64,000 bases of DNA from Tenericutes bacterium MZ-XQ (GTDB lineage: Bacteria > Bacillota_I > Bacilli_A > Acholeplasmatales > Acholeplasmataceae): NCBI GenBank assembly GCA_002838205.1, contig CP017950.1, positions 496,001 to 560,000 of the forward strand. The letters run 5' to 3'. The notes below the pieces were generated by a model. That model was not told where the DNA came from, searched no databases, and saw only the letters and a program-made list of their open reading frames with translations. Of the stretch, positions 28,080 to 30,477 are shown one piece after another. The translations under genes were made by a program, and so were the position numbers. The number at the start of each line of letters is the position of its first letter. Position 1 is the stretch's first letter.

Positions 28080-28730
28080 CTAAATTGAAGTGTTGATTGT
28101 TTTAGGAGTTGCTTTATTAAGTAACAACGCAATCCCCATACCTATTTCTGCAAGTGTAACAAAGATCAATAATAGATTTCCAACACTTGTAAAAAATAGA
28201 CTATCAAGTATAAAGTGATTAAACACATCAATTAAGTATCCAACACTACCCAAGATTAAGATGTACCCTAAATATTTCCATAACGTTTTTACATACTTGA
28301 TCATTATGATACCTAAAACAAGCACATGGAAACTAAAGACAAACTGCCATACAAAGGTAAAATCAACATGTAAATCGACGAAACCAATAGGATTTGTACC
28401 ACTACCAATGAGAATCAACATTAAATAAACCACATTGATGATCATCACACCAACTACAATCATTCTTAAAACATAAGCAACCTGCGATAAGAACCGATCG
28501 ACTGGAAGAAACAATTTCAGTAATAGAAATGCTAAAGCAATTTCGATTCCAATAATTAAAACATCTAAAAACAGCCAAATATAAATTAAATACATGTTAT
28601 TTAAAATATATTGATTAGGATCTACCGCATTATAAATCATATCAGGTATAAGTAAAAATGCGAAAGGTCCAGGAATAATCAATGATAGATATAAAATGCC
28701 TGCAATCAAACTTCTTTTCCTTTGTGTCAT
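28080..28730 (-). CDS. DUF4386 family membrane protein
   Basis: 216 aa with about six membrane helices. The opening SLIAGILYLSLIIPGPFAFLLIPD and the ordered helices match the DUF4386 family, whose role is unknown. AAGAAG precedes the ATG. It stands alone between the GH5 remnant and the IS110 element. A TATACTC/GAGTATA inverted repeat with 19 bases between arms lies just upstream and may be an operator. Confidence 0.75.
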   Translation of the reverse strand: MTQRKRSLIAGILYLSLIIPGPFAFLLIPDMIYNAVDPNQYILNNMYLIYIWLFLDVLIIGIEIALAFLLLKLFLPVDRFLSQVAYVLRMIVVGVMIINVVYLMLILIGSGTNPIGFVDLHVDFTFVWQFVFSFHVLVLGIIMIKYVKTLWKYLGYILILGSVGYLIDVFNHFILDSLFFTSVGNLLLIFVTLAEIGMGIALLLNKATPKTINTSI

Positions 28731-28808
28731 TTTACTTCTTGTATACTCAAAACTGTAATAATAGTTAGAGTATAACTTCCTTTCTTTCTATTGTTATAAT
28801 TAAATTAA

Positions 28809-28957
28809 GCACTGTGGATTTGTGTCATTTATATATAGCTTTGACTATTGGAGGAGACTCTTACCACAGTTCTTATTTTTAATGTCAATCAGTAAGTTAG
28901 CGCTTGACGCTTCATCACAAGACTACATAAATAAGAAATCTGTGACTTACCCAGTGC
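28809..28957 (+). ncRNA. Structured left end of IS110 element, candidate bridge RNA
   Basis: Non-coding DNA upstream of the transposase gene carries several nested complementary pairs: GCACTG/CAGTGC (28809, 28952), ACTGTGG/CCACAGT (28811, 28864), a perfect nine-pair TTCTTATTT/AAATAAGAA (28870, 28929), and an inner GTCAA/TTGAC. IS110 elements are known to encode a bridge RNA in this position that names the target and donor DNA. The exact ends and guide loops cannot be set by eye. Confidence 0.5.
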
Positions 28958-28982
28958 TAAAACTTATATTGGAGGTGTTTTT

Positions 28983-30149
28983 ATGTACTTAATCGGAATT
29001 GATATCTCTAAGTACAAACACGACTGCTTCATAGCTACTGAAGCAGGTATTCAAATCAAAGCATTCAGCTTTGATAACAATCGTTTAGGTTTCGATTTAT
29101 TTCTTGAGGTCTTAAAATCTTTAGATCAGTCAAAAGAAATAAGAATAGGTCTTGAGTCAACAGGACACTATGGATCAAACCTTAAACAGTTTATCACGGC
29201 ATCTGGTTATACTTATCTGGAATTTAACCCTTACTTAACGCACATGTTTTCCAAGGCATTATCGTTACGTAAGACAAAGACAGATAAAGTTGACGCCAAA
29301 ACGATTTCAAGTATGCTAGGTTCTGTTGACTACAAGACCTTACATACTAAATTTTACCACATCAACGAATTAAAACAACTGGTAAGGTATCGTCATGTTC
29401 AAATGGTCAATCGTTCTAAAACACTCATTGAACTGACAAACATCCTTGATCGTATCTTTCCTGAGTTTAAACCTTTTTTTAACGAAAGACTCTCTAGTAG
29501 TGCGATGTTCATCCTTAAAAAGTTCAAATCCAGAGCAAGAATTTCGAAACTTTCTAACAATGACTATGAATCCATTAGAAGTCACTCTAAAGGCAGATTA
29601 TCTTATGTTAGAGTTCAAAAACTTAAATCTTTAGCTAAATCATCAGTTGGATATGAAACTCAGTCTGATCTGTTACTTCTTAAACACTCCATAAAACACT
29701 ATGAGACGTTAACTGAAATCATTGAATCTGTTGAACATGAAATCATCCATCTCATGGAAAATATCAATCAAACACTGACAACCATTCCAGGTCTCAACAT
29801 CATCTCTGCAGCAATTATCATCGCCGAACTTGGTGATTTTAAAAACTTTACAAATCCAGCTCAAATTGTTTCATTTGCTGGACTGGATACATCTGTCAAT
29901 CAATCAGGAACAATAGAAACCAGAGGACATATCGTCAAACGTGGATCCGGATTACTTAGAATGACTTTTTGGCAAATCACTTTTGCGGGCTTAAGATTGA
30001 ATCCTAAACTCTATGATTATTACCTTAAGAAACGTGCTGAAGGTAAACATCATAAAGTCGCCATGGTTCACTCTGTTAGAAAACTAATACGCACGATATA
30101 CTATTTAGGTGTCAACCAACTGACATTTGATCATTCACATTTCAAATAA
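28983..30149 (+). CDS. IS110-family transposase
   Basis: 388 aa, full length. The N-terminal RuvC-like DEDD domain shows Asp in IGIDISK near residue 6, Glu in GLESTGHYG near 60 and the Asp pair in TDKVDAKTI near 102. The C-terminal Transposase_20 domain has LTTIPGLNIISAAIIIAELG near 265 and the catalytic serine in SVNQSGT near 310. All key residues are present, so the element could be active. GGAGGT precedes the ATG. Confidence 0.95.
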   Translation: MYLIGIDISKYKHDCFIATEAGIQIKAFSFDNNRLGFDLFLEVLKSLDQSKEIRIGLESTGHYGSNLKQFITASGYTYLEFNPYLTHMFSKALSLRKTKTDKVDAKTISSMLGSVDYKTLHTKFYHINELKQLVRYRHVQMVNRSKTLIELTNILDRIFPEFKPFFNERLSSSAMFILKKFKSRARISKLSNNDYESIRSHSKGRLSYVRVQKLKSLAKSSVGYETQSDLLLLKHSIKHYETLTEIIESVEHEIIHLMENINQTLTTIPGLNIISAAIIIAELGDFKNFTNPAQIVSFAGLDTSVNQSGTIETRGHIVKRGSGLLRMTFWQITFAGLRLNPKLYDYYLKKRAEGKHHKVAMVHSVRKLIRTIYYLGVNQLTFDHSHFK

Positions 30150-30228
30150 TCAAATGAGGGTGTAGCTACCTCTTATTTGTTCATAAAACTTATATAGGCT
30201 TCCATGTGAGGTCTTTTACTATTTTTTA

Positions 30229-30477
30229 TCATTTATTGCTTGACTTATTATAGTAAGTCTCCTCATCTTTAAAAAATATTTCTTCAATGGTTAAATCGAA
30301 GACTTCTGCAATCTTAAACGCTAAATCAAGCGATGGTGTATAATTGCCTTTTTCAACTGCGACAATTGTTTGCCTTGAAACACCTACAAGATCACTGAGT
30401 TGTGCTTGCGACATCTCATCATGCATAAACCTTAGTTCTCTGATCCTGTTTTTAATATAACTTTCTTTTTTACTCAT
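30229..30477 (-). CDS. XRE-family small helix-turn-helix regulator
   Basis: 82 aa, nearly all one HTH_3 domain: ELRFMHDEMSQAQLSDLVGVSRQTIVAVEKGNYTPS, then EVFDLTIEEIF. This short form (YozG-like) is usually encoded with a membrane protein that it regulates, as here, where the membrane gene ends two bases before it. The protein probably represses the pair's own promoter. Confidence 0.9.
   Translation of the reverse strand: MSKKESYIKNRIRELRFMHDEMSQAQLSDLVGVSRQTIVAVEKGNYTPSLDLAFKIAEVFDLTIEEIFFKDEETYYNKSSNK

What the first reader, a model, noticed from the sequence alone, without database searches (positions are those of the whole stretch)
28809..28982. Likely bridge RNA of an intact IS110 element
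The 170 bases before the transposase gene contain nested perfect complementarities, including a nine-pair stem. IS110 recombinases use a bridge RNA made from this end to choose target and donor sites. This lineage's guides may be new.
Basis: partly seen in the sequence, partly recalled or inferred. Interest (0 to 1): 0.5.

Follow-up and report, generated by a model that had tools for sequence, protein, structure and literature searches.

The report
Jumping gene aimed at gene starts
The DNA in front of this transposase gene almost certainly encodes the guide RNA of an intact IS110 mobile element, and the guide is written to match the ribosome-binding site and start codon of genes, so the element lands just before the coding part of many different genes.

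Summary
Window 28807-28962 is the bridge RNA of an intact IS110-group element (28740-30260), present as 7 identical copies in this 2.16 Mb genome. A covariance model built only from other, 46-61% identical relatives finds it at 151.6 bits, E 1.3e-28. The fold covaries: 17 of 27 pairs change on both sides, 0 of 500 shuffles as good.

The new part is what the guides say. The right target guide is a Shine-Dalgarno (SD) sequence, and the left target guide usually begins with an antisense start codon. All 7 copies sit between SD and ATG. Uninterrupted sites in related genomes confirm this. Over 70 sites of relatives, guide and target covary (0 of 2000 permutations), and 57 of 70 sites open a gene (controls 51 of 700).

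All 20 IS110 copies of this genome lie at gene starts. Twelve carry the SD in the right guide and strip the gene of its SD. Eight distant ones (28% identity) carry it in the left guide and leave the SD with the gene.

Transcription and activity are untested. IS900 is a precedent for such sites. New variant of a known kind.

The parts
28738..28739 (+). Left copy of the core dinucleotide CT (antisense of the AG inside the SD of the target gene)
   Evidence: Shared by all 7 copies, after which the left flanks differ; uninterrupted sites in related genomes
28740..28982 (+). Left end (LE), 243 non-coding bases before the transposase gene
   Evidence: Identical in 7 copies
28742..28747 (+). TATACT, predicted -10 of a promoter that exists only in the circular form (with TTGACT of the right end, spacer 17)
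   Evidence: 65 distinct junctions, -35/-10 score mean 10.2 of 12 against 8.0 shuffled; spacer 17 in 60 of 65
28807..28962 (+). Bridge RNA (model match); transcript ends not measured
   Evidence: Hold-out covariance model 151.6 bits, E 1.3e-28; covariation
28808..28811 (+). 5' arm of the closing helix (AGCA)
   Evidence: Pairs with 28955-28958; 3 of 4 pairs with changes on both sides
28955..28958 (+). 3' arm of the closing helix (TGCT)
28812..28817 (+). 5' arm of the target-binding-loop stem (CTGTGG)
   Evidence: 100% of cells paired in 26 sequences
28826..28834 (+). Left target guide CATTTATAT: antisense start codon CAT, spacer letters, and T at core position 8
   Evidence: position 8 is T in 86 of 86 RNAs; letters around CAT match targets, 0 of 1000 permutations
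28835..28848 (+). Inner hairpin of the target-binding loop, ATAG-CTTTGA-CTAT
   Evidence: 4 of 4 pairs with changes on both sides
28850..28856 (+). Right target guide GGAGGAG = Shine-Dalgarno sequence, pairs with CTCCTCC of the target top strand
   Evidence: Guide-target covariation
28864..28869 (+). 3' arm of the target-binding-loop stem (CCACAG)
28870..28878 (+). 5' arm of the nine-pair donor-binding-loop stem (TTCTTATTT)
28929..28937 (+). 3' arm of the nine-pair stem (AAATAAGAA)
28891..28898 (+). Left donor guide AGTAAGTT, matches the right end AGTAAGT at 30252-30258; last T lies over core base C
   Evidence: T in 85 of 86
28899..28911 (+). Inner hairpin of the donor-binding loop AGCG-CTTGA-CGCT
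   Evidence: 100% of cells paired, 3 of 4 pairs with compensatory changes
28914..28921 (+). Right donor guide ATCACAAG, pairs with CTTGT(AT) at the left end
   Evidence: its core letters agree with those of the right target guide in 85 of 86 RNAs
28983..30149 (+). IS110 recombinase (transposase), 388 aa
   Evidence: PF01548 E 6.4e-32, PF02371 E 2.1e-21
30150..30258 (+). Right end (RE), 109 bases
   Evidence: Identical in 7 copies
30240..30245 (+). TTGACT, predicted -35 of the circle-junction promoter
30259..30260 (+). Right copy of the core CT; with 30261-30263 (target) it is CTCCT, the antisense SD
28080..28730 (-). Target gene (DUF4386 protein, 216 aa), start codon 7 bases from the core; its SD now lies on the far side of the element

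Best explanation
This is an intact IS110-group insertion sequence whose left end encodes a bridge RNA. SHOWN by sequence: the RNA has a target-binding loop and a donor-binding loop. The donor loop matches the two ends of the element. The target loop holds an SD sequence as right guide and, usually, an antisense start codon plus spacer letters as left guide. The element and its relatives sit, in a fixed orientation, with the crossover inside the SD of a gene pointing away from the left end. INFERRED from IS621: the element excises as a circle whose joined ends form a sigma-70 promoter. The RNA made from it binds the recombinase, pairs by its right guide with the top strand at the SD and by its left guide with the bottom strand at the start codon, and recombines at the two-base core (CT here, CA in about half of the lineage). 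Because an SD five to seven bases from an ATG is found at many genes, one guide serves many sites. Insertion leaves the coding frame whole but moves the SD away from it, so the gene is probably turned down unless the element supplies transcription and translation signals (inference). A second, distant IS110 type of the same genome reaches the same address with the SD in its left guide and leaves the SD attached to the gene.
For: Seven identical copies; all reconstructed sites read AGGAG-N(5-7)-ATG. Uninterrupted sites in 4 related genomes of the genus carry SD and ATG directly joined for sufU, an aminotransferase gene and rlmN; in the nearest one the joint is the reconstructed sequence, one base apart for sufU. 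Type B: 4 of 4 at GAGGTG with core CA. Right guide against right target over 70 sites, permuted within core class: positions 10-13 match 96, 94, 90, 79% against 73, 74, 67, 45%; 0 of 2000; one site per guide pair n=53 and one per distinct right guide n=38, 0 of 1000 each. Left guide aligned on CAT, 55 of 70 sites: 2.85 of 5 letters against 2.13, 0 of 1000. Start codon 2-13 bases from the core opening a frame of 60 aa or more (or 30 or more cut by the locus end) in 57 of 70, control 51 of 700. AGGAG alone does not give this: of 49 AGGAG in the window only 14 have ATG 3-9 bases on. Core letters in right target guide and right donor guide agree in 85 of 86 RNAs. Fold covariation; hold-out model. 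Junction promoter.
Against: No transcript or recombination was measured. Thermodynamic z-scores are modest. The left guide fits only loosely: in the fixed IS621-like register it matches 3.41 of 7 against 2.98 permuted, and neighbouring registers are also above chance; the SD-to-ATG distance in targets varies (mainly 5-7) while the guide encodes 5, so a bulge or tolerance has to be assumed. 31 of 101 distinct sites were dropped for short contigs or uncertain ends, and the ends were located with the core read from the RNA. One of the 7 window-type sites opens only a 7-aa frame.
Confidence: 0.93

Rival explanations
1. The element inserts widely and selection keeps only copies upstream of coding frames, so the gene-start pattern is survivorship and not guide-directed.
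For: Insertions between SD and ATG spare the coding sequence, and such bias would also enrich intergenic sites (general reasoning; for the sites).
Against: The crossover is at the same base of the SD in all 7 copies. Right guide and target covary between elements with different SD spellings (CTCCT, CACCTC, CACTCC, CAACTCC, CATCTCC, CACCCC, CTTTC), 0 of 2000 permutations. Survivorship cannot produce that.
Confidence: 0.03
2. The conserved structure is a regulatory leader of the transposase mRNA (it lies in its 5' region) and not a guide RNA.
For: It directly precedes the transposase ribosome-binding site; ISPpu9 of the same family has a structured 5' region and regulatory small RNAs (title and start of abstract of PMC8450116 seen).
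Against: Loop letters covary with target flanks and match the element's own ends, which a leader would not need. Both roles may coexist.
Confidence: 0.04
3. Only the SD (right guide) determines the site; the left guide and the start codon are passive, because SDs lie before start codons anyway.
For: Right-guide signal is much stronger than the left-guide signal. Left-guide register is loose.
Against: In the window only 14 of 49 AGGAG have an ATG 3-9 bases on, yet all 7 copies do. Left-guide letters around CAT match above permutation, and 64 of 86 left guides read CAT or TAT at the expected place.
Confidence: 0.2

Closest known systems
IS621 bridge RNA and recombinase (IS110 group; PMC11208160, PMC11208158, passages read)
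   Same: RuvC-like plus Tnp-domain recombinase, long left end, bridge RNA with target-binding then donor-binding loop, left guides 5' and right guides 3' in each loop, CT core, donor right side CTTGTAT, circle-junction promoter, right donor guide with skipped base(s).
   Different: Targets are translation-initiation regions, not REP elements. Right target guide is 6-7 bases, not 4. Position 8 of both left guides is T in all or nearly all RNAs (86 and 85 of 86), so only the right guides read the second core base. Core is CA in about half the lineage, although the second T is called almost invariant for IS621. A helix closes the whole RNA; no separate 5' stem-loop was identified.
IS900 of Mycobacterium avium subsp. 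paratuberculosis (IS110 family)
   Same: Reported to target translation initiation signals (title of Doran et al. 1997, seen only in the reference list of PMC8141618). As I recall, it sits between SD and ATG in one orientation.
   Different: IS900 carries an opposite-strand frame spanning the element (hed); here the longest opposite-strand frame inside the element is 71 aa. No guide RNA explanation of its target was found in the library searches.
seekRNA of IS1111 members and ISEc21 (PMC11187229, passages read)
   Same: Same guide principle; upstream non-coding region in the IS110 type.
   Different: Its IS1111 members have the RNA downstream of the gene; none of the passages read mentions SD or start-codon targets.
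Elements of Tenericutes bacterium MO-XQ (L083/L034) and UBA5409 (L081/L033)
   Same: 89% and 96% identical recombinase, same fold, same kind of SD guide.
   Different: Other target sites; right guide GAAGGAG.

Membership tests
IS110 group (IS621-like) of the IS110 family | Recombinase with DEDD_Tnp_IS110 (PF01548) and Transposase_20 (PF02371) | tested here: met
   E 6.4e-32 and 2.1e-21, both above the curated cut-offs; ISCro4 and IS621 are the only solved relatives by sequence
IS110 group (IS621-like) of the IS110 family | Long left end, short right end, no long terminal inverted repeats | tested here: met
   LE 243, RE 109 bases; ends of the 7 copies read by eye
IS110 group (IS621-like) of the IS110 family | Bridge RNA in the left end with two internal loops | tested here: met
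   Covariation, hold-out model; transcript not measured
IS110 group (IS621-like) of the IS110 family | Target guides pair with target flanks | tested here: met
   Right guide 0 of 2000 permutations; left guide 0 of 1000 when aligned on CAT, weaker in fixed register
IS110 group (IS621-like) of the IS110 family | Donor guides pair with the element's own ends | tested here: met
   Read off; the ends were located with these guides, so this is partly circular, but for type A the ends were first fixed by comparing 7 copies; core agreement between two separate loops 85 of 86
IS110 group (IS621-like) of the IS110 family | Promoter formed at the circle junction | tested here: met
   Sequence only: TTGACT-17-TATACT; 65 junctions, 74% score at least 10 of 12 against 3% shuffled
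IS110 group (IS621-like) of the IS110 family | RNA bound by the recombinase, RNA-guided recombination | not testable with these tools
   Needs RNA sequencing and a recombination assay
IS1111 group | Long right end carrying the RNA, long subterminal inverted repeats | tested here: not met
   Right end is 109 bases; RNA lies in the left end
IS900-like use of translation-initiation sites | Insertion between SD and start codon in one orientation | tested here: met
   7 of 7; empty sites
IS900-like use of translation-initiation sites | Long opposite-strand frame (hed) that borrows the host SD | tested here: not met
   Longest opposite-strand frame within the element 71 aa, not at the end; no ATG, GTG or TTG close behind the retained SD (sequence)

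The most novel reading that the evidence does not exclude
In this part of the bacterial tree IS110 guide RNAs have repeatedly been aimed at the translation-initiation region as such. One guide reads the SD and the other the start codon, with tolerance for the spacing between them, so the target is a piece of gene grammar and not one sequence. At least two guide arrangements reach it with opposite effects: SD in the right guide cuts the SD from the gene, SD in the left guide leaves it attached. Cores change naturally between CT and CA, because the left guides hold a neutral T there and only the two right guides must change together.
Probability: 0.65. Interest if true: 0.75.

Novelty: new variant of a known kind. 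Interest (0 to 1): 0.62.

Why it matters
It gives the target choice of an IS110 lineage a readable code. A natural guide set that addresses gene starts explains how one element can hit many genes without breaking a reading frame, and offers an RNA-guided explanation for older observations such as IS900. The natural CA cores, the invariant T in the left guides and the 6-7 base right guides are possible rules for people who reprogramme bridge recombinases, for whom the second core base was thought nearly fixed. Two guide arrangements in one genome, one that strips and one that keeps the SD, make the effect on host genes directly testable.

Tried and rejected
Thermodynamic folding alone: z -1.4 and -1.6, not convincing; replaced by covariation.

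A first reading that the element's right end includes CTCCT was rejected: the CCT belongs to the target, because relatives' empty sites carry it and only then is the junction promoter spacer 17.

Closing helix of 7 pairs and an extended donor stem (CACAG/CTGTG): paired cells only 63-76%, several pairs often broken; four closing pairs kept.

Left guide in fixed register: significant but weak and spread over three registers; aligned on the start codon it is clearer.

A conserved -10 inside the left end just before the RNA: 85 of 86 have one, but shuffles give 66%, so this count proves little; the hexamer's place (15-17 bases before the stem in 66 of 86) is suggestive only. An earlier version of this count used 5 sequences through a parsing fault and is discarded.

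Recombinase residue 111 (Y or W in 44 of 46 CA elements; M, K or others mostly in CT elements) looked like a core reader, but the tree offers only 4 independent contrasts, so it is confounded with descent.

Self-targeting of the element's own transposase start: 16 of 86 right guides match it fully over 6 bases; no consequence was traced.

Full report
WHAT WAS CHECKED. The finding places a bridge RNA in the 170 bases before an IS110 transposase gene at 28983-30149. The frame encodes 388 aa with PF01548 and PF02371. The window is part of a 2,157,199-base single-contig genome. The nearest named relatives are Acholeplasmataceae and 'Tenericutes bacterium' records. The genome holds 7 identical copies of this element (type A), 4 copies of a 48% identical one (B), one of 46% (C) and 8 of a 27-28% identical one (D).

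ENDS AND SITES. Comparing the 7 copies fixes the element at 28740-30260 with a CT core on each side. The reconstructed sites, read on the strand of the target gene, are all AGGAG, then 5 to 7 bases, then ATG, with the core AG inside the SD. One first doubt was whether the CCT after the right core belongs to the element. For the sufU, aminotransferase and rlmN targets, the other 4 genomes of the genus (5, 4 and 4 loci) have no insertion there, and an SD-like sequence runs straight on to the start codon. In the nearest relative the joint is the reconstructed one, with one base different for sufU. So the CCT is target sequence. In the window the target is a DUF4386 gene, 28080-28730 on the minus strand. 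The SD side now lies at 30259-30263, next to the end of a helix-turn-helix gene whose last residues are now encoded by the right end.

FOLD. 86 distinct left ends of relatives with at least 38% protein identity were aligned. On 26 of them (chosen for closeness in length and kind) the structure named has 89.9% of cells paired, 17 of 27 pairs with changes on both sides, 0 of 500 shuffles as high, and falls to 35-50% when slid. A covariance model from 19 sequences without type A finds window 28807-28962 at 151.6 bits, E 1.3e-28; the next match has E 0.064. In the whole genome it finds 12 places, which are the 7 A, 4 B and 1 C copies. Rfam has no match in the window at its gathering scores.

GUIDES. 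IS621 supplies the layout (passages of PMC11208160 and PMC11208158). Here the target loop has the left guide CATTTATAT (28826-28834) and the right guide GGAGGAG (28850-28856). The donor loop has AGTAAGTT (28891-28898), which matches the right end, and ATCACAAG (28914-28921), which pairs with the left end CTTGTAT with one base skipped. Position 8 of the left guides is T in 86 of 86 (target) and 85 of 86 (donor) RNAs. It would form a U-G pair with the complement of the core C, so the second core base is read only by the two right guides. Their core letters agree in 85 of 86 RNAs: 46 CA, 37 CT, one TT, one TA; L069 disagrees. On a protein tree the CT/CA label needs 5 changes (at least 4 on well supported branches), so the core has switched several times.

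GUIDE AGAINST TARGET. From 144 copies, 101 distinct sites were derived and 70 kept; the 31 dropped are named (short contigs, low end scores). Among the kept, L081 was misplaced by my end finder (the alignment shows the right place) and was left in. Right guide against right target: 47 of 70 sites match all 6 of core plus 4, 18 match 5, and 5 match 3 or 4. Within-core permutations never reach the observed match (0 of 2000; 0 of 1000 with one site per guide pair or per distinct right guide). The spellings differ and follow each other, for example CACTCC, CAACTCC, CATCTCC, CACCCC and CTTTC. The left guide is weaker: in the IS621-like register 3.41 of 7 letters against 2.98 (0 of 300), with two neighbouring registers also above chance. 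Aligned on the start codon the five letters after CAT match 2.85 against 2.13 (0 of 1000) and the six before it 2.82 against 2.50 (1 of 1000), in 55 of 70 sites. 64 of 86 left guides read CAT or TAT at the place that would pair with a start codon five bases from the core. Targets have 3 to 12 bases there, mainly 5 to 7, so some slack is needed.

GENE STARTS. In 57 of 70 sites a start codon 2-13 bases from the core opens a frame of 60 aa or more, or of 30 or more cut by the end of the locus; random positions open one of 60 or more in 51 of 700. 62 of 64 start codons found are ATG. CAT lies within 12 bases of the core in 62 of 70 sites, against 14 of 70 for a nearby control stretch. AGGAG alone is not enough: 14 of 49 in the window have an ATG 3-9 bases on, 11 of 49 with a frame of 60 aa.

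A SECOND ARRANGEMENT. Following the more distant IS110 types gave a surprise. The 8 D copies, and six elements 35-37% identical in three other genomes (L070-L072, L076, L077, L044), also lie at gene starts, but their crossover is on the other side of the SD: the gene keeps AGGAG or AGGAA and its start codon. Their RNA region holds antisense SD letters in what looks like a left-guide position: CACTCCT in 7 of 8 D sites, ACTCCT for L070, TCTTCCT for L077, TATATTCTCC for L044 (for L071, L072 and L076 the best shared string lay elsewhere and may be chance, and L025 gave a five-base one). The metK site of a D copy is uninterrupted in the 4 other genomes of the genus and, in the nearest one, matches the reconstructed site closely; a second gene tried this way had no close relative and was not used. 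D targets include metK, a TyrRS and a ThrRS gene; in the ThrRS case the T-box leader is cut off from the gene. Taken together, 20 of 20 IS110 copies in this genome lie at SD plus start codon, and 18 of 20 open a frame of 60 aa or more (A 6 of 7, B 4 of 4, C 1 of 1, D 7 of 8).

HOW IT PROBABLY WORKS. As IS621: circle, junction promoter (TTGACT-17-TATACT here; 65 junctions score 10.2 of 12 against 8.0 shuffled), bridge RNA, recombination at the core. The site preference is explained by the guides.

KNOWN OR NEW. Bridge RNAs are known; this is a lineage with a different aim and with core variation. IS900 is an older observation of the same aim without a guide RNA (title of Doran et al. 1997 in the reference list of PMC8141618; its site consensus is recalled, not seen). 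Searches of the open library for bridge RNA with Shine-Dalgarno, IS110 family with Shine-Dalgarno, IS110 with ribosome binding site, IS900 with translation initiation and bridge RNA papers since 2024-2025 listed, by title and start of abstract, no paper that reports guide RNAs aimed at gene starts; 'Shine' and 'start codon' do not occur in PMC11208160. Most subscription papers and all preprints are outside that library.

Noticed in passing
L025-L032 (own genome), L070-L072, L076-L077, L044: Distant IS110 elements (27-37% identity) also sit at gene starts but leave the SD with the gene; antisense SD letters are in a left-guide position.
   Followed up: partly
L028:2862-3054 (T-box) and L028:3-1166 (ThrRS gene): A D-type IS110 separates a threonyl-tRNA synthetase gene from its T-box leader, while the gene keeps its SD.
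   Followed up: partly
window 30229-30477 (-): The helix-turn-helix gene upstream of the target now ends inside the right end of the element; its last residues are element-encoded.
   Followed up: yes
window 28742-28775: TATACTC ... GAGTATA inverted repeat at the start of the left end, kept with compensating changes in relatives (by eye); it puts a TATACT on both strands, one of them facing the target gene (weak promoter match, 9 of 12).
   Followed up: no
recombinase residue 111 (window 29313-29315): Aromatic (Y/W) in 44 of 46 CA-core elements, rarely in CT-core ones; possible reader of the second core base, but confounded with descent.
   Followed up: partly
right guides of 16 of 86 RNAs: The right target guide matches the SD of the element's own transposase gene over 6 bases, so self-insertion looks possible.
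   Followed up: no
L069 (G007:C1:1786183-1787337): Outlier: right target guide and right donor guide give different core letters, and the SD is missing from the right guide.
   Followed up: no
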